A stretch of DNA of 38,540 nt from a virus, in the IMG/VR virus record IMGVR_UViG_3300023245_000040, positions 1 through 38,540 of that record, one strand, 5' to 3'. The translations under genes and the position numbers were made by a program. The notes beneath the pieces were generated by a model. It was not told the origin of the DNA. It saw only the letters and a list, made by a program, of their open reading frames with translations, and searched no databases. Of the stretch, positions 20,638 to 34,441 are shown piece by piece. Within the stretch, counting starts at the first letter, position 1. The number at the start of each line of letters is the position of its first letter.

Positions 20638-20658
20638 TTACAATTTTATAAAGAAGCT
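20636..20658. repeat. 23-bp direct repeat, copy 2
   Basis: Identical to 20478-20500. It overlaps the last codons of the minus-strand gp6-like gene (Ala-Ser-Leu-stop) and the stop of the 40-residue plus-strand ORF. Confidence 0.9.
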
Positions 20659-22517
20659 ACACGAATTGAGATGTCGTGAGTGGTGTTTTTAATTTCAAAC
20701 ATAACCAAAGGCAATCCCAATATTGAATTATCTAATAATTCAAACTCTGTAATATAACCTCCAGTTCCAGTTATTAATTGTGTATTTAAAGTTGCTTGTG
20801 GGTGAAGTGTTTCTGAATAACCACCACCTTGCATGTTGTAGAAAGTCATTTCAACGATATTGATTACTCCCGGAATTTCTCTTAGCATATCTGTGATTTG
20901 AGAAACATAAATATGTTCATTCATTTGCCATTTTTCAACATCAAAGAAATCAGAAACCTCCTTAACCGCAGCTTGTTTTATTTCTTTTGAATTAAAATTA
21001 TCCCCATCTATCAATAAGTCGATATTCAGTTTAATGTTGACTATTTTACCATCATTTATTTCTACAAAATCGTTTATCATTCTGTATCTTGAAATATACT
21101 TAATCATATTACTTTTAATCCTACTTGTTGAAGGAGATATTAAAGAACCATCTCCAGATCTTGAGATAATGTGCATTATAACTTTGTTTTCGTCTACCTC
21201 AGAAGATATTCTAAAAGGTGCGCCAAATTTTCCGTCAATTTGATACGCACGAGATGTATAATCTTTTAAAGTAACACACCTCTCTTGAGCTGCGTGATTG
21301 GCTGCTATGTTTTTGGTTATCTCTTCTATTGAAGGAAGACCTCTTCCTCCTAGCGCAGGGTAAGGGTTGTTCATTCTTGTTGAAGCTACTATTGAGTCGT
21401 TTATCCCTTGATCTGTTCCGGGGTTAGTTGAACTAATATTGCTAATTTCTTGTAAAACATTCGCACCTACATTTGAAGTTAAACCTCCTCCTGCTCTATA
21501 TTTTACATATACAGTGCAGTTTTTAGGCAGTTTTTTACCCAAAGCTTTGTTGTCAAGAACATCTCCTATGTTTATTGCTGTTTGAGGTTTGAATGGATTT
21601 TCTATCCCGATTAAAGAATCAAGATACTCTTCATAAGCTGTATAAGATTCTACCCCTCCTCCAAATGTTAACCTACATGAACCGTCTGCTAAAAATTCTT
21701 TTTCAAACCTACGTGGAACTTCTTTCCAATATCCTTGGAAGTTACCTTTAGAATCTTGTTCATTTGTTTGTTTTACAAAAATATCATCAGTTGGTAAAAA
21801 GTCAACTTCATACCATTTTAATGAATCGTTGTTAAAGTCAGAAAAAGTAGGGTTAGAAGTTAAGTTTAATTGTTCGTAAACAATTATAGAATCAATATGA
21901 AGTACATTTTTGTCACTTATATTAAATTTATAAAAAGGCTTGTTCCCATCTGTTATCTCTCTTTTTATAATTTTAGTAACTCCCGCTTTGACTTTTTCTC
22001 TCTTTACTATTTGATACCTTAGTAATTGATTATTCTGGTTCAATACTTCATTTATAATTCTATTTGGAAGACCGTCTTCTGAAAAGTCAGAAGAAAAATC
22101 TATATCTTCCATAGTTTCAAAAATCTGACCACCTCCAGAAACTCTTATTCCTGACCTGTATATTGGAAGGTAAGACTCATCAGGCCCATCAGAGGTAGCG
22201 GGGACATCGATTGTTATATCAACGGCTGTGATTGAGGGGCGCACACCCGGAACTCGGTAGCCTTTTGTCTTTGCCAATCTATAAGCCTCTACTCTTTGTT
22301 TAATTCCATCTAAAAAAAGAGAATTAAACTTCTTGTCTGCTAGGTGAGAAAGTAAATCCCCAACATAGGCGTTTAAGTCTAATATCGCCATCCCCGGAGA
22401 TGCGATGTTAAAATCTTGCCATTCATCTGGGTAGAATGCTTTTAGGTAATTTTCTAAATCCGTTCTAATAGATGAAAAATTTCTGCTTATATAATTTACT
22501 TGTACTTGATCTGACAT
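20646..22517 (-). CDS. Baseplate wedge protein, T4 gp6-like (baseplate J family)
   Basis: The 623-residue protein starts VNYISRNFSSIRTDLENYLK and continues with FYPDEWQDFNIASPGMAILD, the characteristic opening of T4 gp6-like wedge proteins. Later features are EAYRLAKTKGYRVPGVRPS (70-95), the long beta-rich middle, YVKYRAGGGLTSNVGANVL (about 345) and EERCVTLKDYTSRAYQI-like residues (about 410), all typical of the J/gp6 fold. It forms the inner iris of the contractile tail baseplate and works with gp25. The gp25-like gene lies immediately upstream, 12 bases away, the conserved order in many myoviruses. Length is close to T4 gp6 (660 residues). Its 3' end overlaps a 23-bp repeat. Confidence 0.92.
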   Translation of the reverse strand: MSDQVQVNYISRNFSSIRTDLENYLKAFYPDEWQDFNIASPGMAILDLNAYVGDLLSHLADKKFNSLFLDGIKQRVEAYRLAKTKGYRVPGVRPSITAVDITIDVPATSDGPDESYLPIYRSGIRVSGGGQIFETMEDIDFSSDFSEDGLPNRIINEVLNQNNQLLRYQIVKREKVKAGVTKIIKREITDGNKPFYKFNISDKNVLHIDSIIVYEQLNLTSNPTFSDFNNDSLKWYEVDFLPTDDIFVKQTNEQDSKGNFQGYWKEVPRRFEKEFLADGSCRLTFGGGVESYTAYEEYLDSLIGIENPFKPQTAINIGDVLDNKALGKKLPKNCTVYVKYRAGGGLTSNVGANVLQEISNISSTNPGTDQGINDSIVASTRMNNPYPALGGRGLPSIEEITKNIAANHAAQERCVTLKDYTSRAYQIDGKFGAPFRISSEVDENKVIMHIISRSGDGSLISPSTSRIKSNMIKYISRYRMINDFVEINDGKIVNIKLNIDLLIDGDNFNSKEIKQAAVKEVSDFFDVEKWQMNEHIYVSQITDMLREIPGVINIVEMTFYNMQGGGYSETLHPQATLNTQLITGTGGYITEFELLDNSILGLPLVMFEIKNTTHDISIRVASL

Positions 22518-25007: not shown

Positions 25008-25150
25008 ATGTGAACTACCCACGCACGGCAGAGCCGCTACTGTGAGCTTCATGTGTCATAACTCCAACTAGTGTTGGCAGCTCTACATGATTTTTCCTAT
25101 CAGTCCCTGATAAGATGTCTTTTAGGGCGAAAGATTTGATGTTGACAGCT
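25005..25150 (-). ncRNA. Putative omega RNA (reRNA) of TnpB, approximate limits
   Basis: In the IS200/IS605 family the guide RNA of TnpB is made from the 3' end of tnpB and the right end of the element. Here that interval holds a compact stem CGGC-TCT-GCCG (25026-25036) followed by GTGCGTGGGTAGTTCA and the junction with AT-rich phage DNA. The scaffold would end near 25008-25012 and the next ~16-20 bases of phage sequence would be the guide. Limits are inferred from family knowledge, not seen. Confidence 0.4.
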
Positions 25151-26196
25151 GCGTTGACATCTCTGTCGTGCGTCACGCCACAACTCCCACAAGTCCACTC
25201 TCGGTCTGCTAGAGTCATTCCCTTATGGATATGTCCACAGTCCGAGCAAGTCTTCGAGGAGGGCGCAAATCGACCTATTCGAAGGATGTTTTTACCTCGC
25301 CATTCTGCCTTGTATTCCAGCATCAAAACAAAAGTAGACCAACTAACATCGGCAATTGCCTTGGCTAAGCAGTGGTTTTTCATCATATTTTTCACTGCAA
25401 GTGTCTCTAAAGCAATCGTTTGGTTATCGCTGATTAGCTGATTAGAGGTTTTATGCAGGAAATCTTTCCTTTGGTTTACCACCTTTTCATGTAGTATAGC
25501 AAGACGATGTCTTCTCTTCTTGCCTTTATGTTTTGAGTACCTATTTTGCGTATACGCAAGCCGTGACTTCATCTGGCTCAGATACTTTGGGTTTGCAAAG
25601 ACATCTTGGTTTGAAGTCACTACAAAGTCCTTGATCCCTAAATCCACTCCTACTGTCGTGCTGGTGGTGATCGGTGCTTTCTCAGGCGCTTCTGTTTGGG
25701 TGTCCACCAAGATCGACACGAAGTACTTGCCAGTAGATGTTATGCTGATGGTTGCGCTTCTGATAATACCTTTTATCTCTCTGTGAAGGACAATTGGAAT
25801 ACCTTTCTTTTTAAACTTGGGTATAATAAGCTCGGACTTCTCTATGTCCAACATGACGTTCTGAGGGACGTGGAATGACTTTGCTCCTCGATGCTTGGAT
25901 TTAAACTTTGGAAACCCACCCCCTTTCCAGAACTGTTTGAATGCAGCATCCATGTTTTGAATGGATTGCTGTAGTGTTTGTGAGTTAATCTCCTTCAGCC
26001 AAGGATAATCCTTCTTCAGTTCTGGTATTTGTCTGTTTAAATCAAAATGAGACAAATTATGCTTTGTACCCAGATAAGCCAAATTTTTTGTCTCTAAAGC
26101 AAGATTATATATCCACCTAGCGCTGCCAATATGCTTGGCTATCAGCTCCTTTTGAAGCTCGGTTGGTTTGATTCGGTATTTGTATGCTTTATACAT
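25015..26196 (-). CDS. tnpB: TnpB, RNA-guided nuclease of IS200/IS605-type element
   Basis: The 393-residue protein has normal TnpB length and all expected parts: N-terminal YKYRIKPTELQKE (OrfB_IS605 helix-turn-helix), FPKFKSKH near 95-102, and the RuvC acids D185 (GVDLGIKD), E264 (IALETL) and D346 (HDRDVNAA). The zinc ribbon is C317-x2-C320 and C336-x2-C339. Nothing is missing, so the nuclease should be active. TnpB uses an RNA from the element's right end to cut DNA next to a short target-adjacent motif, which helps the element persist at its donor site. No tnpA is present. TAG stop at 25015. A resident phage gene cluster appears to have been interrupted by it. Confidence 0.93.
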   Translation of the reverse strand: MYKAYKYRIKPTELQKELIAKHIGSARWIYNLALETKNLAYLGTKHNLSHFDLNRQIPELKKDYPWLKEINSQTLQQSIQNMDAAFKQFWKGGGFPKFKSKHRGAKSFHVPQNVMLDIEKSELIIPKFKKKGIPIVLHREIKGIIRSATISITSTGKYFVSILVDTQTEAPEKAPITTSTTVGVDLGIKDFVVTSNQDVFANPKYLSQMKSRLAYTQNRYSKHKGKKRRHRLAILHEKVVNQRKDFLHKTSNQLISDNQTIALETLAVKNMMKNHCLAKAIADVSWSTFVLMLEYKAEWRGKNILRIGRFAPSSKTCSDCGHIHKGMTLADREWTCGSCGVTHDRDVNAAVNIKSFALKDILSGTDRKNHVELPTLVGVMTHEAHSSGSAVRG

Positions 26197-26872: not shown

Positions 26873-27346
26873 TTAATCCAAAAGATAATGCCACTCTTTG
26901 TTTCTTGGGAGAATGTAAACAAAAACATCTAAGTCAGGAGTTTGGTCTTCAATTATTTCTGATATTTCTTCCCAATCCCCGCCAGCCAAACCAGCTCCTA
27001 TTAAAGGTATCCCCAAAGACATTCCTCCGTACTCTTCGTTTAACAAAGAAAAAACCTGCTCTATAGCATCTATATCTACATCAACTTCATGTCGGGTATA
27101 TTTATATTGAGTGTATAGGTTTAATATTTTGAAACCATCAAATTGAGCAAAAGTATAGTTTCCTAACTTATTTCTATCTCCGTATGCTGTTTTCAGATCA
27201 GCTAGATGAGCATCTTTAAACCTAAGCCTTACTTCTTTTGCAATACCAGCCCCCATGCTTAAAAAGCAATTACATCCATGACCAATTAAATCAAGATTAC
27301 TTGTTTGATCTAGTAGATTTCCTTTTTTGTAAATGATCTTTGACAT
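26873..27346 (-). CDS. Macrodomain protein (ADP-ribose binding/hydrolysing)
   Basis: The 157-residue protein is a stand-alone macrodomain. Residues 20-36 (LIGHGCNCFLSMGAGIA) form the first ADP-ribose loop with N26 at the conserved catalytic Asn position, and 111-125 (LGIPLIGAGLAGGDW) form the second glycine-rich loop. The form resembles the Poa1p/TARG1-like branch, which removes phosphate from ADP-ribose 1''-phosphate or ADP-ribose from nucleic acid or protein. In a phage it could reverse host ADP-ribosylation defences or hydrolyse ADP-ribose signals, or serve NAD and tRNA-repair metabolism; the sequence does not decide. A TACTTTTG -7-like box is at 27360-27367, but the nearest upstream TTG is at 14 bases, shorter than expected. 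Confidence 0.85.
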   Translation of the reverse strand: MSKIIYKKGNLLDQTSNLDLIGHGCNCFLSMGAGIAKEVRLRFKDAHLADLKTAYGDRNKLGNYTFAQFDGFKILNLYTQYKYTRHEVDVDIDAIEQVFSLLNEEYGGMSLGIPLIGAGLAGGDWEEISEIIEDQTPDLDVFVYILPRNKEWHYLLD

Positions 27347-27393: not shown

Positions 27394-27660
27394 ATGATAA
27401 ACAAGTATGTTATGAGAAAAAGAGATTTAACAGAAGGGAAAAGCTGGTTTGAAATAGTAGCAAAATCGAATAATTATTTATGGTTGTTCATTGGAGTTCT
27501 AGTTTGCGTGATTTGGGGCATAGTAAAGCCTGAAGATCTTGGATACCCAGACGGTGGTTATTGGGTGCTTTTGTCCTTAGGGGTATCTATGCTTTTGGTT
27601 TTAGGATATAAAGGATTATACCAAAAATACAACGATTTAAAAAAGGGTAAAATAAGATGA
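27394..27660 (+). CDS. Two-span small membrane protein (holin-like), 88 aa
   Basis: The 88-residue protein has two hydrophobic segments (about 28-44, WLFIGVLVCVIWGIV, and 56-73, YWVLLSLGVSMLLVLGYK) separated by a short acidic/Gly loop (KPEDLGYPDGG), with basic ends. This topology fits a small holin. Its stop overlaps the start of the next membrane gene (ATGA), so the pair are translationally coupled and may act together, like a holin and partner. Other start choices at M7 would shorten it only slightly. A holin role is inferred from topology and pairing; no lysin gene is visible in the window. Confidence 0.6.
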   Translation: MINKYVMRKRDLTEGKSWFEIVAKSNNYLWLFIGVLVCVIWGIVKPEDLGYPDGGYWVLLSLGVSMLLVLGYKGLYQKYNDLKKGKIR

Positions 27661-28148
27661 GTTTTTTTGGAGACATATTAAAAGAACCAACCGAAGGGGG
27701 TCGTAGGTTTTCTCAGGGAAGGATTTATCTTTTTATTTCATTTTCTGCATTTATCACGCTTAACATATTGTTATCTGTCTGTGCATTTATAGGAGTTAAC
27801 TTAGAGTCTAAAGAAACTCTTGAGCTAGTAAGTTCAAACCTAAAATGGGCTTTAGGGTCATTCTCTCTATACGTTTTAGGAGGTAAAGGTATCGGTGCAT
27901 TTAGAGATAGAGACACTGGGATATCAAACAACTACAACCACGAAAGAAAAGGCGGAAACAACCCTTATGGAGGACATGTGGGAAATTCACATTCACATTC
28001 AAACACACATTCAGATTTCGGACCAAGTTCTTACGGAGGAGCTTACCCGCCAAGTGACGTAGACGGTGACGATGAGGAACACAGCCAAAACGAGTCAAAT
28101 AACAACTCTAGCGGAGGCTATGGGGCTGATGAGGAAGAAATTAATTAA
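27657..28148 (+). CDS. Two-span membrane protein with His/Gly/Asn-rich acidic tail, 163 aa
   Basis: Residues 1-85 form a compact membrane domain with segments at about 23-48 and 62-80 (NLKWALGSFSLYVLGGKGIG) preceded by GGRRFSQGR. Residues 86-163 are a polar low-complexity tail, first His/Asn/Gly/Ser-rich (HVGNSHSHSNTHSDF) then acidic (DVDGDDEEHSQNES). The His run could bind metal. It overlaps the upstream 88-residue membrane gene by 4 bases (ATGA). The pair may be a holin system; a structural membrane scaffold is an alternative. Confidence 0.58.
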   Translation: MSFFGDILKEPTEGGRRFSQGRIYLFISFSAFITLNILLSVCAFIGVNLESKETLELVSSNLKWALGSFSLYVLGGKGIGAFRDRDTGISNNYNHERKGGNNPYGGHVGNSHSHSNTHSDFGPSSYGGAYPPSDVDGDDEEHSQNESNNNSSGGYGADEEEIN

Positions 28149-28169
28149 ACATACTATAGTTTAAATAAA

Positions 28170-28640
28170 ATGAGGGAAGATTTAAAAAAAATAGCAAAAA
28201 AAAAGAAAATTGAAATTGAAGAAATTCTAGATAACAAAAATCTTAGAAAAGCATTTTTCAATAACAGGAGTCTTATGTTTGGTTTTATAAAATCAGATTT
28301 CACTATATATAAAACAAGCAAATCAATGTCTGATTGCTTGGGTTACAAAAACAACGAATTAGAAGGGAAGAGTATTTTAGATTTTTCAGAACTCTCACAA
28401 TTAGAAAAAGACCTTCCTATATATAGGTATATGATTGAAAACAATAAAAGCTCTTTTTTTATGCATCCAGCTAAATATATAAATAAAAAAGGAGAGGTTT
28501 TTCAAGTGCAGTGTCTAGAGCCTATTTTTATAAAAGAAAAAAACTTATGGCTTCTCAGTTCTTACTTAATAGAGAATGGAGCAAAAGGGATAACAGTGTT
28601 AACGGATAGATATCAAAAATTCATAAATGATAGAGATTAA
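28170..28640 (+). CDS. Stand-alone PAS-like domain protein 1, 156 aa
   Basis: After a lysine-rich N-terminus (KKIAKKKKIEIEEIL), residues ~35-135 follow the PAS fold order: SLMFGFIKSDFTIYKTSKSM, LGYKNNELEGKSILDF, then INKKGEVFQVQCLEPIF and LWLLSSYLI. There is no kinase, DNA-binding or GGDEF partner. The next gene encodes a homologous PAS-like protein and overlaps it by 14 bases, so they are probably a duplicated pair that may heterodimerise. Ligand or protein partners are unknown. It lies 21 bases after the membrane pair on the same strand and probably shares their transcript. Confidence 0.62.
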   Translation: MREDLKKIAKKKKIEIEEILDNKNLRKAFFNNRSLMFGFIKSDFTIYKTSKSMSDCLGYKNNELEGKSILDFSELSQLEKDLPIYRYMIENNKSSFFMHPAKYINKKGEVFQVQCLEPIFIKEKNLWLLSSYLIENGAKGITVLTDRYQKFINDRD

Positions 28641-29106
28641 AAAGATAGAAGAAATTAAAGATTTTGACAAATTTGTAGATGACATCTTTGAAAGACAAGA
28701 CATCAGAAACCAGATGTTTGAAAACAAACAAATGCTTTATGCAGCACTAGATAATTTAGGAAACTTTAAATACTTAAGTGAATCTTGGAATAAATGTTTA
28801 GATTTTACCCAAGAAGAATTCCAAATAGTTCCTTTTACTGTTTTTTTACACCCAGATGATTTAGAAGAATCTTTAGATGCTTTTGAGTTTTTTAAAAAAT
28901 TCAAAAGACCTGCTATTAAAATGTTTGCAAATAGATACCGAAAAAGAGACGGAGAGTACGCCTTAATTCAATGGTTCGAGCCAATATACTCAAAAGAAAC
29001 GAAGCTTTGGCTGTTTACCGCTTTTGAAATACCAGAAGGTCACAAAGGAATGTGCTTGTACAATGAAGGGTATGTTCCTTTTAAATGGAAAGGGAAGAAA
29101 CTATAA
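28627..29106 (+). CDS. Stand-alone PAS-like domain protein 2, 159 aa
   Basis: Residues ~40-140 give a clearer PAS pattern: LDNLGNFKYLSESWNKCLDF, then F-LHPDDLEESL (the typical 'HPDD' helix), NRYRKRDGEYALIQWFEPIY and LWLFTAFEIPEGHKG. The ending parallels the upstream paralogue (ENGAKGITVL versus EGHKGMCLY). It starts inside the previous gene (14-base overlap), so translation is coupled. No output domain is fused. Its stop overlaps the convergent GIY-YIG gene by 6 bases. A host-signalling mimic is one idea, but no direct evidence is present. Confidence 0.7.
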   Translation: MIEIKKIEEIKDFDKFVDDIFERQDIRNQMFENKQMLYAALDNLGNFKYLSESWNKCLDFTQEEFQIVPFTVFLHPDDLEESLDAFEFFKKFKRPAIKMFANRYRKRDGEYALIQWFEPIYSKETKLWLFTAFEIPEGHKGMCLYNEGYVPFKWKGKKL

Positions 29107-29421
29107 GTCTTTTACAATCTTGTAATTTGATTCATTAAATAAACATTTTTCTTGAAATCCATAAACCTCTTCAAGACCTAAATAAAACCATTCCCCACGA
29201 AGAGGTACGCCATTTGCATCTTCTTTGTTTGAAGACAGACTTCTGTGAATAATGCCTTCTACCTCATAAGCATAAGGAGTAGAAAAAGAATCAATAATTT
29301 CTATTTTGTATGGACATCCAACTTGAATGTTAAGAAGCCTTATTTGAATGCCTTTATTATCAGTTACGCCTATTTTATACAAAGAAGTCTCTTTAGAGCC
29401 AATTAAGTAAATACAATTCAT
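29101..29421 (-). CDS. T5orf172/MUG113-type GIY-YIG domain protein, 106 aa
   Basis: The protein opens IYLIGSKETSLYKIGVTDN, the GIY-YIG equivalent of the T5orf172/MUG113 group (Y5 and Y15), followed by RLLNIQVGCPYKIEII, E54 in YEVEGIIH and the EWFYLGLEEV ending that marks this family. Such proteins are small predicted nucleases found in phages and in mobile or restriction-like genes; many are free-standing. It could be a homing-type or host-DNA-degrading nuclease. It is alone on the minus strand, convergent with the PAS-like pair, and divergent from the gene at 29492. Confidence 0.75.
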   Translation of the reverse strand: MNCIYLIGSKETSLYKIGVTDNKGIQIRLLNIQVGCPYKIEIIDSFSTPYAYEVEGIIHRSLSSNKEDANGVPLRGEWFYLGLEEVYGFQEKCLFNESNYKIVKDL

Positions 29422-29743: not shown

Positions 29744-30252
29744 TTCCCTAAGCTAACTGTCACATAATCTTTAAAGTCTTCAAAAACAGCCCCTAGAAGG
29801 TCTAACAGAGTAATAGGGGACGATATCTTTTTATCTTTATTTGTGAAACCAAACTCGTCATGCACTAAAACTTTATTGCTGATACTAACAATTACATCTT
29901 GGTAACCTTCTGTAGCGAAGTCTTTTTTAACGGTTCTTATCTTAGGTATAAAAATTAAATCTCCTTCTGAAGAGATTATCAATTCCTTATAAATAACTAT
30001 TTCTGAAATAGGCTCTACAACTAATCCTGATGAAACAAGCGTGTTTAGAGCATCATACTCTTCTAAGAAATAATCTTTAACAAACCCTTTTAAATGAAAT
30101 AACACGTTCATTAGTTCACTAAGAGTTAACTTATCTTCCAAGAATATTTGCTCAGAAACAGAGGCAAGTAAAAAATCCCCTACTTGATTGTAGGGGATTT
30201 TTAATTCTTGATTCTCAAAACTAATCTTTCCCTTTTTTTGTATTTGTACCAC
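29737..30252 (-). CDS. Hypothetical protein, 171 aa, overlapping the clp gene end
   Basis: Not recognised. The 171-residue acidic protein has alternating strands and helices (LTLSELMNVLFHLKGFVKDY in the middle) and no membrane segment. Its start at 30252 lies 32 bases inside the 3' end of the ClpC-like gene, so the two are coupled. Unusually, a strong terminator-type hairpin lies inside its early codons (30171-30202), so its transcription may be attenuated. The first in-frame internal Met is near residue 48, so the true start may be a non-ATG codon after the hairpin. Confidence 0.5.
   Translation of the reverse strand: MVQIQKKGKISFENQELKIPYNQVGDFLLASVSEQIFLEDKLTLSELMNVLFHLKGFVKDYFLEEYDALNTLVSSGLVVEPISEIVIYKELIISSEGDLIFIPKIRTVKKDFATEGYQDVIVSISNKVLVHDEFGFTNKDKKISSPITLLDLLGAVFEDFKDYVTVSLGNH
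30171..30202 (-). terminator. Strong intrinsic terminator inside a coding region
   Basis: AAAAATCCCCTAC and GTAGGGGATTTTT form a 13-bp perfect stem with loop 30184-30189. On the minus strand the GC core is preceded by an A-run and followed by TTTTTT (30170-30175). It lies 19 bases past the ClpC-like stop but inside the first codons of the 171-residue ORF. The symmetry allows action in both directions. Confidence 0.75.
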
Positions 30253-32407
30253 TTATTTTTATTTTTTTACTTCTCTTATCATAAGAGACTTTTATTTTAT
30301 CTTCACGAGATACATCTCCATTAATTAATGCATTTGATATTTCATTCTCTACATACTGAGTAATAGCTCTCTTTAGAGGTCTAGCTCCGTATTTTTCATC
30401 AAAACCTTTTTCTGCAACAAGAGTTCTAACAGACTTATCAATAACTACATCCATCTTCTGATCTTTTTTGAGTCTTTTAATCATATCTTCGATTTCTATC
30501 CCCACAATCTCTAGCGCATTCTCCTTAGATAAAACATTAAAGACTATCTTCTCATCTATTCTGTTAATAAACTCAGGAGCAAACTGCTTCTCTAATTCAG
30601 CAAACACTAACTCTTGAACCTTTTCACCCTTAAAAGTTTCATCTTGAGAAGAAAAACCTAATGAATTAGACCCGCCTGAAACAATTTTATTAGTTCCAAT
30701 GTTTGAGGTCATTATAATTATGCAATTCTTAAAATTCACCTTACTTCCTGTGGCATCAGTTAAGTGGCCATCATCAAGAATTGATAAAAATAAATTGAAA
30801 ACATCTCTATGAGCTTTTTCTATTTCATCAAAAAGAAGAATTGAATAAGGTTGGTTTTTTACTTTTTCAGTTAACTCTCCTTTTTCTTCATGACCCACAA
30901 ATCCGGGAGGCGCTCCGATTAGCCTAGTAGTAGAGAACTTCTCCATATACTCAGACATGTCAAATCTAACATAAGCATCATCTCTATCAAACAAATACTT
31001 AGATAACTTCTTTGCTAAATGAGTTTTACCTACACCAGTTGGTCCTAAAAACAAAAAGGAAGCTGGCTTGTTAGGGTTTTGAATCCCCAATCTAGAACGC
31101 TGCAAAGCAAGAGCAACCTTAGCCACTGCATCTGACTGACCTACAACTTGACTCGATAGGATATCTTTAATTTTAGACATTCTTTCAGTCTCAGAGTCCG
31201 TAAGCTTATCTAGAGGTATATTTGTATGAGAAGAAATAACCCTAGCCACATCTGCCATAGTTACAGGTTTTCTTTTTTTGTTAAATTGTTCCTCCCATTT
31301 TTCTGTAGACAATTTAAGAGCAACTTCGATTTCTTTTTGACTATCTCTAAAAACAACAGCCTCTTCATATCTTTGGGAATCAGAAGCTTTTTTCTTTTTT
31401 GCTGCCATTTCTTGTATCTTCTCTTTCATATCAACGATATGAGCAGGAAGTTCAATTGCAAGTTTTGCCACAGAACCAGCTTCATCCATAATATCAATTC
31501 CTTTGTCTGGGAAGTTTCTGTAGTTTATATATCTACCTGAAAGATTTACAATTTCTTGAATCACTTCATCAGAATAAGAAACTCTGTGATGATCCTCATA
31601 TTTGTATTTTATTTGATTAAGAATCTGATAAGTCTCTTCCTCACTCGGAGCAAGTAAAAGAACTTTTTGAAACCTTCTAGCTAAAGCCGTATCGTTCTCA
31701 ATTGTTTTCTTGTAGTCATTCAAGGTAGTTGCTCCAATACAAGTTATCTCTCCTCTTGCCAAGATAGGCTTAAGAATATTCGCTGCATCCATTGAACCCG
31801 AAGCTGAACCTGCACCCAAGACCATATGTATCTCATCAATAAAAACAATTATATCTGGATTTTTTTTCAATTCCTCTATAATAGCTTTCATTCTCTCTTC
31901 AAACTGACCTCTATATTTTGTTCCTGAAACAATATCTGTGATATTCAGTTCTACGATTCTTTTATCATGCAACCAAGGGTCTGTATCTTTCTTTTCAATA
32001 CGAATAGCTAAAGCTTCAGCAAGAGCTGTGTTGTGAGAAAGAATCCCGTTCGTATAATATCTGTGATTTGTGTCGTCTGATAATTCAAAATCAAACATAG
32101 TCTCTTTAAAACCTAAACTACACATCGAAAAAACTTCTTCAACACCATCTATTGTAATAACTTTATCTCCCTCTGACAAATCCTTAACATAAACCTCCTC
32201 TAAAGAAGAGTTAAAAACTAAATGGTTATCTGCACACCTAATTTCTTTTCCACTCTTTAAAAGAAGATGATAAACCTCATAAGGAATAGTCTCATGCAGC
32301 TTATCTGCCTTCTCAAATCCATTGTCAGTTAATATACTGTAATTTTCTAAATTTATAGTATTAATAAATTTCTTCAACCCTAAATCTTCTACTTCTACTG
32401 CTTCCAT
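30221..32407 (-). CDS. Split-intein C-fragment fused to C-terminal part of ClpC-like AAA+ unfoldase
   Basis: Residues 1-126 are an intein C-fragment: block B GKEIRCADNH (H62), LSEGDKVI, block F MFDFELSDD, and the terminal GILSHN (H125, N126), followed by the +1 residue T127. From T127 the sequence is a Clp/Hsp100 ATPase: TALAEALAIRI completes Walker A of the first AAA+ ring, Walker B is D191-E192, and the arginine fingers are R244-R245. The middle domain is short, with a ClpC-like QRYEEAVVFRD motif (345-355). The second ring has Walker A GPTGVGKT (455-462), DE 527-528, R616 and GAR sensor 2 (676). NSLGFSSQDE (581-590) fits a ClpP-docking LGF loop. The matching N-part is at 33964-34386. Without trans-splicing, the first-ring P-loop is incomplete. 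Confidence 0.93.
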   Translation of the reverse strand: MEAVEVEDLGLKKFINTINLENYSILTDNGFEKADKLHETIPYEVYHLLLKSGKEIRCADNHLVFNSSLEEVYVKDLSEGDKVITIDGVEEVFSMCSLGFKETMFDFELSDDTNHRYYTNGILSHNTALAEALAIRIEKKDTDPWLHDKRIVELNITDIVSGTKYRGQFEERMKAIIEELKKNPDIIVFIDEIHMVLGAGSASGSMDAANILKPILARGEITCIGATTLNDYKKTIENDTALARRFQKVLLLAPSEEETYQILNQIKYKYEDHHRVSYSDEVIQEIVNLSGRYINYRNFPDKGIDIMDEAGSVAKLAIELPAHIVDMKEKIQEMAAKKKKASDSQRYEEAVVFRDSQKEIEVALKLSTEKWEEQFNKKRKPVTMADVARVISSHTNIPLDKLTDSETERMSKIKDILSSQVVGQSDAVAKVALALQRSRLGIQNPNKPASFLFLGPTGVGKTHLAKKLSKYLFDRDDAYVRFDMSEYMEKFSTTRLIGAPPGFVGHEEKGELTEKVKNQPYSILLFDEIEKAHRDVFNLFLSILDDGHLTDATGSKVNFKNCIIIMTSNIGTNKIVSGGSNSLGFSSQDETFKGEKVQELVFAELEKQFAPEFINRIDEKIVFNVLSKENALEIVGIEIEDMIKRLKKDQKMDVVIDKSVRTLVAEKGFDEKYGARPLKRAITQYVENEISNALINGDVSREDKIKVSYDKRSKKIKISGTNTKKGKD

Positions 32408-32447
32408 TTTTGTTTGTTTTTATATCGTTTACGAATATACATTTTTT

Positions 32448-33908
32448 TTAATTCTGAATGAAATTTAAACACCTTTTTATGACTTCTTGTTTTGAGTTTT
32501 TGTAATCATTCTCACAAATATGTAAAACTTCGTAACCAGAACCTATTATATCACTATCTCTTTGTTTTTCTCTTTTTTTATTTTCTGAAGTTCCTCTGTG
32601 AAAATAAACACCATCGAACTCTATTATCTTACGTTTGTTTTCAATGAAAAAGTCTGGTAAAATAAATGTTTTTTTCAAAGGTAATCTAAACTCATGATTC
32701 TTTCCGCTTTTATCAATAGACTTACTGTTTTGGTCAAGTTCAGCAAAATAAATTATGTTTTCATTTATAAACTCTTGACTTAAATTACCAAAGACCTCCC
32801 AAAACATTCTTTGTGACACTTGACTAAAATTACTTTTCTTGTAAGATAAAGCCCATTTTTTTTGTCTGTTTAACCAAATCTCTCGACCCTTTTCCTCTCC
32901 GTGCTTTGCAATACATTTTTCCAACGAAAATGTTGACTGCCTCTCCTTATACTTCTCCTCCGCTTCCTCTAAAGTATCACACTTGTTAACCCAATATTGT
33001 TTTTGGGTTTCTGTGAAAGCAGAAAAAAACCAAGGTTCAGTCTCTCTTCTACTGTGTAGTTTGTTGGAATTTATTTTTTGTATAGAGGCTATCTTATTTT
33101 GAATCTCCTCACCACTTAATTCCGCGTCCTTTAACAACCAGTACTCTTTCGAATACATCGTGTTTTGACTAACTTTAATCTTTGCCTCTTTTTCATCTAA
33201 ACCAAAAAGTTCCATGTAATACTGAGTGGAATTTAAAGCCAATTTTGACAACTTAATTTTAACTTTGTCAACTTCCTCTATAGATTTCTCATACGACAAT
33301 CCCTCTAACAACCAAAAACCTTTTTGATTCCTCGCTTTTAAGTTAATTCTATCATTTTTAGATAAGAAAATACTCTCTGACAAAAACGCCAACTGCCTTA
33401 TAGAGACTATCTCCTTATTATGAGAAGCGCACTTGTCATTTGAACACTCCTGAATTACGTAAGATTCAATTAAAATATCAAACTTTAACTTGCTTTTACA
33501 TAAATTACACGTAGGCTCTCCTTTTTGCTTATAACTAAACGACCCATACGAAAAATCATTCTCATTTTCATCGCTTATTTTTTTTGCCCCCTTCGTATCT
33601 CTTCGTTTTGAAACCCATAAACTATGCTCATCAACCCCATAACCTCTCTCTAACCAAAAATCTAACTTAAATGCAGACCTGTGCTTAAAACCAAATTGCT
33701 TTACAACCCTCCACCCTAATGTTGTGAGTTTTGTTTTTTCATCTAACTTAGATAATTCACTATACACAGTGTTAAACTTCTCCTCCAAAGACTCAGTGTT
33801 TATGAAATCGCTTTCTTTTTTCACAAAACCCCTTAACGAATTCACGTCAATAAAGTATTCGTTAAACTGGTAATAGTGTATTCCTTTGTTTTTCTCTACA
33901 ATAATCAT
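32448..33908 (-). CDS. Free-standing Vsr-like (EDxHD) homing endonuclease
   Basis: The 486-residue protein has a C-terminal Vsr-like nuclease: E406, D419 (LPDFF), IIEFDGVYFHRG (E430, D432, H437) and QRDSDI (D451/D453), ending in GYEVLHICENDY. This is the motif set of the EDxHD family typified by I-Bth0305I. A zinc finger (C134-x2-C137, C155-x4-C160) and repeated helical motifs such as SLEKCIAKHGEEKG (328-341) probably bind DNA. It lies between the two halves of the split-intein ClpC-like gene, 54 bases after the N-half and 40 before the C-half, the fractured-gene arrangement. It would recognise the uninterrupted Walker A coding site in rival phages and spread the whole cassette. A 32-bp palindrome abuts its ATG. 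Confidence 0.88.
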   Translation of the reverse strand: MIIVEKNKGIHYYQFNEYFIDVNSLRGFVKKESDFINTESLEEKFNTVYSELSKLDEKTKLTTLGWRVVKQFGFKHRSAFKLDFWLERGYGVDEHSLWVSKRRDTKGAKKISDENENDFSYGSFSYKQKGEPTCNLCKSKLKFDILIESYVIQECSNDKCASHNKEIVSIRQLAFLSESIFLSKNDRINLKARNQKGFWLLEGLSYEKSIEEVDKVKIKLSKLALNSTQYYMELFGLDEKEAKIKVSQNTMYSKEYWLLKDAELSGEEIQNKIASIQKINSNKLHSRRETEPWFFSAFTETQKQYWVNKCDTLEEAEEKYKERQSTFSLEKCIAKHGEEKGREIWLNRQKKWALSYKKSNFSQVSQRMFWEVFGNLSQEFINENIIYFAELDQNSKSIDKSGKNHEFRLPLKKTFILPDFFIENKRKIIEFDGVYFHRGTSENKKREKQRDSDIIGSGYEVLHICENDYKNSKQEVIKRCLNFIQN

Positions 33909-33939
33909 TTTCTTCTATTTATTAATAAATAGAAGAAAA
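33908..33939. repeat. 32-bp perfect palindrome at the homing endonuclease start
   Basis: The left arm TTTTCTTCTATTTATT meets its exact complement with no loop base, giving 16 perfect pairs centred between 33923 and 33924. Its edge touches the A of the endonuclease start codon, so in mRNA it would bury the ribosome-binding region; in DNA it could be a dimeric binding site. Confidence 0.85.
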
Positions 33940-33963
33940 AACAATTAATACGTTAAATGTAAA

Positions 33964-34386
33964 CTAGGAGATGGGAAGAGTTTTAACAAAGTCCTCCACA
34001 GAGATTTCTGTTATTTTTCCAGTAATATCGTTCCTTAAAGTTACTAGAGATTCTTTACAAAAACATTTACCGATGCCCGGTTCTCCGATAATGATTGGGT
34101 TGTTTTTTTTTCTTTTATTTAGAATCTGAATAACCATATCCAACTCTACGTCTCTTCCAATAACAGGGTCAAGTTTACCTTGTTTTGCAAGATCAGTTAA
34201 ATCTCGACTAAAGCTATCTAGAGCTTGAGTTTTAGATTTTTTAGAACTCCTTCCACTTCCACTACTCTTTCTTCCTCCTAAACCTTCGCCTTCTTCTGGA
34301 AACTCTCCATCTTCTTCAAAAGCGTTTTTTGGCGAATTAAAGATTAAATCTTTATCGTCTTTGTTTTCTTCGTTCATTTCGTTCAT
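33964..34386 (-). CDS. N-terminal part of ClpC-like unfoldase fused to split-intein N-fragment
   Basis: From ATG 34386 the protein is 140 residues. It has an acidic, Gly/Ser-rich region, then [20 protein letters not shown] and [20 protein letters not shown], the start of a ClpC/ClpB first AAA+ ring, ending GEPGIGK. The next 33 residues are an intein N-fragment: C1[12 protein letters not shown] then [14 protein letters not shown], with a stop. The extein junction is K|C, inside Walker A; the matching fragment continues with T. A longer TTG start at 34413 is rejected because that TTG is part of the promoter -7 box (34411-34418). The Clp N-domain repeats of bacterial ClpC are absent. This is not a frameshifted pseudogene: both intein halves have their motifs. 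Confidence 0.9.
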
Positions 34387-34410
34387 TTGTATTATGATTT
34401 TTTCACCCTT

Positions 34411-34441
34411 CAAATGTAGTAAAAAAACCTAAACAAACCAA
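34411..34441 (-). promoter_or_regulatory. Bacteroidota-type promoter for the fractured clp locus
   Basis: On the minus strand TTG (34439-34441) and TACATTTG (34411-34418) are 20 bases apart, matching the TTG-N19/20-TAnnTTTG form. Transcription would start near 34404 and give a short leader before ATG 34386. Confidence 0.7.

What the first reader, a model, noticed from the sequence alone, without database searches (positions are those of the whole stretch)
28170..29106. Duplicated stand-alone PAS-like proteins encoded by a phage
Two overlapping genes encode homologous single PAS-like domains with no output domain, downstream of a membrane-protein pair. PAS domains are usually sensory modules of host kinases. 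In a phage they could interfere with a host sensor by heterodimerising or bind a small ligand to time lysis with the holin-like pair beside them. Both ideas are inference.
Basis: partly seen in the sequence, partly recalled or inferred. Interest (0 to 1): 0.52.

Follow-up and report, generated by a model that had tools for sequence, protein, structure and literature searches.

The report
Phage stand-alone PAS sensor gene pair
A bacterial virus carries two overlapping genes for small, isolated sensor (PAS) domains; similar isolated PAS genes in other viruses sit directly beside a gene for a small membrane-anchored protein, which suggests a virus-made sensing device at the cell membrane, not yet tested.

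Summary
PAS1 (28170-28640) and PAS2 (28627-29106) overlap by 14 nt, are paralogous (23% identity), pass the Pfam and TIGR00229 PAS cut-offs, fold as PAS and match solved PAS domains. Neither has an output domain or a membrane segment.

A relative with a shared tail module (gp6 85% identical) has its own overlapping PAS pair about 50 kb from that module. The mem1/mem2 genes upstream of the window pair were found nowhere else, and the syntenic place in another phage lacks PAS. So 'conserved beside the membrane pair' fails.

A pattern scan showed something broader. All 7 contigs it found encode stand-alone PAS proteins. In all 6 whose contig continues, the next gene is a small coiled-coil protein with a C-terminal membrane anchor. 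Both genes are homologous between G001 and L152, two unlike phages.

Best reading (inferred): a late phage sensor or adaptor that works with a co-expressed inner-membrane protein, possibly in lysis control. A host-kinase decoy is not excluded. Stand-alone phage PAS proteins are already in databases; I found no account of this module in print.

The parts
28170..28640 (+). PAS1: stand-alone PAS-domain protein, 156 aa, diverged upstream copy
   Evidence: Pfam PAS_9 6.6e-7 above cut-off; TIGR00229; model and PDB match 3bwl
28627..29106 (+). PAS2: stand-alone PAS-domain protein, 159 aa, canonical copy with PF..FLHPDD motif at 28831-28860
   Evidence: Pfam PAS_3 7.6e-7 above cut-off; model and PDB match 8px4; motif
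28627..28640 (+). 14-nt overlap of the PAS1 end and PAS2 start; probable translational coupling (inference)
   Evidence: coordinates; the G001 pair also overlaps, by 11 nt
27394..27660 (+). mem1: 88-aa protein with two hydrophobic segments, no known family
   Evidence: no relatives
27657..28148 (+). mem2: 163-aa protein with a clear hydrophobic segment at residues 29-47 and a polar G/S/N/H-rich tail, no known family
   Evidence: no significant relatives
27394..29106 (+). putative operon mem1-mem2-PAS1-PAS2 (overlap 4 nt, gap 21 nt, overlap 14 nt)
   Evidence: gene geometry; no convincing promoter found (7 sites against 12.3 expected)

Best explanation
The pair are phage-encoded PAS-fold proteins without an output domain that act as cytoplasmic sensors or adaptors and pass their state on by protein contact to a small inner-membrane protein made from the same late transcript. 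In most phages found, that partner is a coiled-coil protein with a C-terminal membrane anchor encoded by the very next gene. In the window phage its place may be taken by mem1/mem2 just upstream, and the second PAS copy may allow a PAS1-PAS2 heterodimer. The most likely use is control of a late membrane event, lysis or its delay being the first candidate. Shown: PAS fold, duplication, no output domain, adjacency to a C-anchored protein in other phages. Inferred: physical contact, ligand or redox sensing, the role of mem1/mem2, late expression, and lysis as the output.
For: PAS fold by sequence and model. Stand-alone PAS genes in 7 of 7 contigs found by the motif scan. A coiled-coil/C-anchored gene follows directly in 6 of 6 evaluable contigs; L151 ends at the PAS stop. 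Such genes are rare otherwise: 7 of 239 gene-like ORFs in 12 loci, 5 of those 7 directly after a PAS gene (a sixth, in L153, was hidden by an overlapping antisense ORF). The G001 and L152 anchored proteins are homologous (28% over 106 aa, E 2e-8 for the single comparison; 0 of 2000 shuffles) and so are their PAS proteins, though the phages differ in other genes. The L152 cluster goes on with a protein with two hydrophobic segments and a lipoprotein-like protein with a second hydrophobic segment, which resembles a lysis cassette. The L153/L155 clusters lie among tail genes. Precedent: VqmA of phage VP882 senses a host autoinducer through a PAS domain and triggers lysis (PMC8284805, passages).
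Against: The window itself lacks the anchored protein, and its mem1/mem2 have no relatives, so their link to PAS rests on one genome. I recognised no endolysin beside any copy. No family match identifies the anchored protein as a holin; weak matches to PHROG 'hemolysin' and 'holin' models are at 0.001 or worse. The two phage PAS groups do not form one clade in the best tree, though one clade is not rejected (p-AU 0.208). Four of the six evaluable contigs (L153-L156), plus L151, belong to one lineage, so independent contexts number three.
Confidence: 0.4

Rival explanations
1. Decoy: the PAS proteins heterodimerise with PAS domains of host sensor kinases and block or redirect their signal.
For: The nearest cellular relatives are PAS domains of long proteins in many phyla, including a Flavobacterium family of 357-367 aa. 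The phage models keep a helix before the PAS core, where PAS domains often dimerise (recalled), but no output domain.
Against: No single host family is nearest: best matches span Nitrospirota, Latescibacterota, archaea and Bacteroidota. The four PAS of the window and G001 group together (93/99). In other phages the gene is tied to a phage membrane protein and to late clusters, which a decoy does not need.
Confidence: 0.2
2. Virion or assembly part: PAS is a small structural or chaperone component of the tail.
For: In L153-L156 and L163 the gene lies in the tail cluster, after a T4_baseplate-family protein and a second, presumably virion, protein.
Against: In G001 the PAS pair lies about 50 kb from the conserved tail module, and in the window just outside it. 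Tail-module proteins are 39-91% identical, PAS 37% at best, and G002/G003 show no PAS in what is held. The anchored neighbour is not expected of a tail part.
Confidence: 0.15
3. Accessory cargo: a pair of host-derived PAS genes with a moderate effect (stress or redox sensing, phage-phage competition), and the neighbours are incidental.
For: The neighbourhood is patchy: TnpB, macro-domain and T5orf172 genes flank it, and L136 lacks PAS at that place. Fast divergence, and PAS1 is a long branch.
Against: 6 of 6 evaluable contigs elsewhere have the anchored neighbour, and two unlike phages share both genes.
Confidence: 0.25

Closest known systems
PAS domains PF08447 / PF13426 / TIGR00229 of bacterial sensor kinases and diguanylate cyclases (e.g. 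Leptospira LIC_11128, PDB 8px4)
   Same: sequence family and fold
   Different: those are parts of larger proteins with an output domain; these are whole proteins of 156 and 159 aa
Small phage proteins annotated 'PAS domain' in BFVD (e.g. A0A6J5NY05, A0A6J5QVN9, A0A6J5KZZ3 of uncultured Caudovirales phages)
   Same: stand-alone PAS fold encoded by a phage, 169-205 aa
   Different: 8-10% identity; their gene context was not examined here; no tandem pair or membrane neighbour is known to me for them
VqmA of vibriophage VP882
   Same: phage-borne PAS sensor with effect on lysis (PMC8284805, passages)
   Different: has a C-terminal HTH DNA-binding domain; the present proteins have none
XhlA-type haemolysin/holin accessory proteins (PHROG 937, 1193; the XhlA name is recalled)
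   Same: small coiled-coil protein with C-terminal membrane segment, like the anchored neighbour in other phages
   Different: only weak matches (best 0.001 for phrog_1193 and 0.0034 for phrog_937); absent from the window

Membership tests
PAS domain family | score above the curated PAS cut-offs | tested here: met
   PAS_9 30.0 against 27 (PAS1), PAS_3 29.8 against 25.6 (PAS2); TIGR00229 30.0 and 27.9 against 22.9
PAS domain family | PAS fold: antiparallel sheet with flanking helices | tested here: met
   models with mean pLDDT 77-78; PDB matches to PAS
PAS sensor kinase / diguanylate cyclase | linked output domain | tested here: not met
   no other domain in Pfam, NCBIfam, PHROGs or PADLOC; ORF lengths 156 and 159 aa
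VqmA-type phage quorum receptor | C-terminal HTH DNA-binding domain | tested here: not met
   no such domain
VqmA-type phage quorum receptor | binding of a small host signal | not testable with these tools
   needs ligand-binding assays
Holin pair (mem1/mem2) | match to a holin family | tested here: not met
   no holin match in Pfam, PHROGs or NCBIfam
Holin pair (mem1/mem2) | membrane segments in small proteins of one operon | tested here: met
   mem1 28-46 and 54-72; mem2 29-47; overlap of 4 nt
PAS plus C-anchored protein module seen in other phages | anchored coiled-coil gene directly after PAS | tested here: not met
   window has no match to the anchored-protein model at E 0.01

The most novel reading that the evidence does not exclude
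Unrelated phages carry a mobile two-part signalling device, a stand-alone PAS sensor plus a small membrane-anchored coiled-coil effector, with which a phage reads the metabolic or redox state of its host late in infection and sets lysis accordingly; the window phage has rebuilt it with a duplicated PAS pair and a different membrane pair.
Probability: 0.2. Interest if true: 0.8.

Novelty: new variant of a known kind. Interest (0 to 1): 0.45.

Why it matters
Classical lysis timing is seen as a clock set by holin accumulation (recalled, not from a call). A phage PAS protein that acts on a membrane partner would be a direct sensory input into that clock, or into another late membrane event. The recurring PAS plus anchored-protein neighbourhood gives a small, cloneable system to test this. 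If the decoy idea is right instead, the pair would be a new way for a phage to disturb host two-component signalling.

Tried and rejected
Direct searches with PAS1, PAS2, P0001, L156-PAS and L152-PAS in 50,697 phage records gave no match; the anchored protein of L156 and the virion protein beside the L155 PAS gave none either. Viral scans with the single proteins or small alignments gave only G001 or nothing; the hand-made motif pattern worked. Dropped: mem1/mem2 as a conserved partner of PAS; an apparent mem2 likeness to the 133-aa L136 protein (BLASTP E 0.14; 173 of 1000 shuffles as good); a mem2 match in Lactococcus phages at E 0.3. Dropped: the claim that all anchored proteins are one family. 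G001 and L152 are homologous, but the profile comparison of that pair with L153-L156 gave probability 1.4%.

Whether the PAS duplication is ancestral or happened twice is unresolved: pairing PAS2 with P0001, or PAS1 with P0002, is not rejected (p-AU 0.48 and 0.361). The phage PAS as a single clade is not in the best tree (p-AU 0.208). In the first tree I left out cellular rows whose PAS hit was 86 residues or shorter (49 of 60 kept), and in the second also rows of 24 bits or less (37 kept).

A search for the anchored protein in 395 genomes of the phylum of L054 (a Sphingobacterium) found none, but with no positive control there. 40 of 68 ClpC-relative records were screened for PAS: 4 had weak partial matches, in open frames of 548-716 aa, not followed up. 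Paper searches gave no account of a stand-alone phage PAS or of a PAS plus membrane-protein module; I saw listings only, plus passages of PMC8284805.

Full report
What is there. The window is a 38,540-base virus record. Its baseplate wedge gene (20646-22517) resembles those of Flavobacterium phages vB_FspM_immuto at 27%. At 28170-28640 and 28627-29106 lie two ORFs on the + strand that overlap by 14 nt. They are homologous (BLASTP 23% over 132 aa, E 7e-16 for the single comparison), and each passes a curated PAS cut-off. AlphaFold2 models built on four natural sequences have mean pLDDT 77.0 and 77.9, and solved PAS domains are the best PDB matches. Neither protein has an output domain or a hydrophobic segment.

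The neighbours. Upstream on the same strand are mem1 (27394-27660) and mem2 (27657-28148), with a 4-nt overlap and a 21-nt gap to PAS1, so one operon is plausible. mem1 has two hydrophobic segments and mem2 one clear one. Neither matches a holin or any other family above a cut-off. No relative of either was found in 90 viral loci apart from the window itself, nor among 7,382 viral ORFs, nor credibly in the phage records.

Relatives of the phage. Three viral contigs share the tail module (gp6 about 85% identical). One of them, G001 (105.9 kb), has its own overlapping PAS pair about 50 kb from the tail module (P0002 142 aa, P0001 135 aa; overlap 11 nt). These are clearer PAS proteins (PAS_3 6.2e-9 and 9.6e-10). 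Proteins of the shared module are about 39-91% identical across these phages, while PAS2 and P0001 share 37%, so the PAS pair evolves quickly or was gained separately. The four PAS group apart from 49 cellular PAS domains (93/99); whether the duplication is old or happened twice is open. L136, a different phage, keeps the order ClpC-q-p-T5orf172-(gap)-TnpB but has no PAS in the gap or elsewhere in its record (an empty answer without a positive control in that call).

A wider pattern. A degenerate DNA pattern for PF..[FY][IL]HPDD hit 7 stretches in viral contigs: G001 and six others. All seven encode stand-alone PAS proteins (129-189 aa for the six). In the six contigs that continue beyond the PAS gene, the next gene on the same strand, overlapping by 4-38 nt (G001: a 10-nt gap), encodes a 102-144 aa coiled-coil protein with one hydrophobic segment at its C-terminus. 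A crude count gives 7 such proteins among 239 gene-like ORFs in 12 loci, 5 of them directly after a PAS gene. L151 and L153-L156 share flanking genes and count as one lineage, so the independent contexts are three: that lineage, L152 and G001. The anchored proteins of G001 and L152 are homologous (28%, E 2e-8). Membership of the L153-L156 proteins in the same family was not shown by profile comparison (probability 1.4%). In L152 the cluster goes on with a protein with two hydrophobic segments and a lipoprotein-like protein with a second segment, among genes that look like portal and head genes by eye; in L153 and L155 it lies within the tail gene cluster. The model of the anchored protein finds nothing in the window, nor in 395 cellular genomes (no positive control).

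Interpretation. The data fit a phage PAS sensor or adaptor that works through a small membrane protein made with it. Lysis control is the first candidate output because of the membrane partner, the late-gene context, the L152 cluster and the VqmA precedent, where a phage PAS protein with an HTH domain starts lysis on sensing a host autoinducer (PMC8284805, passages). Every step beyond fold and gene order is inference. Against it: the window has lost or never had the anchored protein, its mem1/mem2 are orphans, and I recognised no endolysin nearby. The decoy idea has mainly the nature of the nearest cellular PAS proteins in its favour (57 of the 60 hit frames exceed 300 aa, some cut by contig ends).

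Novelty. Small phage proteins named 'PAS domain' are already in BFVD, so stand-alone phage PAS proteins are a known kind. The overlapping pair and the neighbourhood with an anchored protein are a variant that I did not find described (paper searches; open-licence library only).

Noticed in passing
30221-34413 (-): A ClpB/ClpC-type ATPase gene appears split at its Walker A motif: the upstream ORF (33964-34413) ends in an intein-like start, the downstream ORF (30221-32407) begins with an intein-like end, and a free-standing endonuclease-like gene (32448-33908) lies between. L136 has a similar arrangement. This looks like a split intein in a fractured gene (reading by eye; the kind is recalled).
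   Followed up: partly
26873-27346 (-): Macro-domain protein (phrog_335 E 4.3e-51; PADLOC DarG E 5.6e-10); could counter ADP-ribosylation-based host defence.
   Followed up: no
25015-26196 (-): TnpB-like protein of 393 aa; L136 carries a 50% identical one at the corresponding place.
   Followed up: no
29101-29421 (-): T5orf172-domain protein (Pfam 2.1e-9) convergent with PAS2, with a relative in L136 (37%).
   Followed up: no
L164:10852-11627: Downstream of the L152/G008 PAS and anchored-protein genes: a 109-aa protein with two hydrophobic segments and a 149-aa lipoprotein-like protein with a C-terminal segment, a possible lysis cassette without a recognised endolysin.
   Followed up: partly
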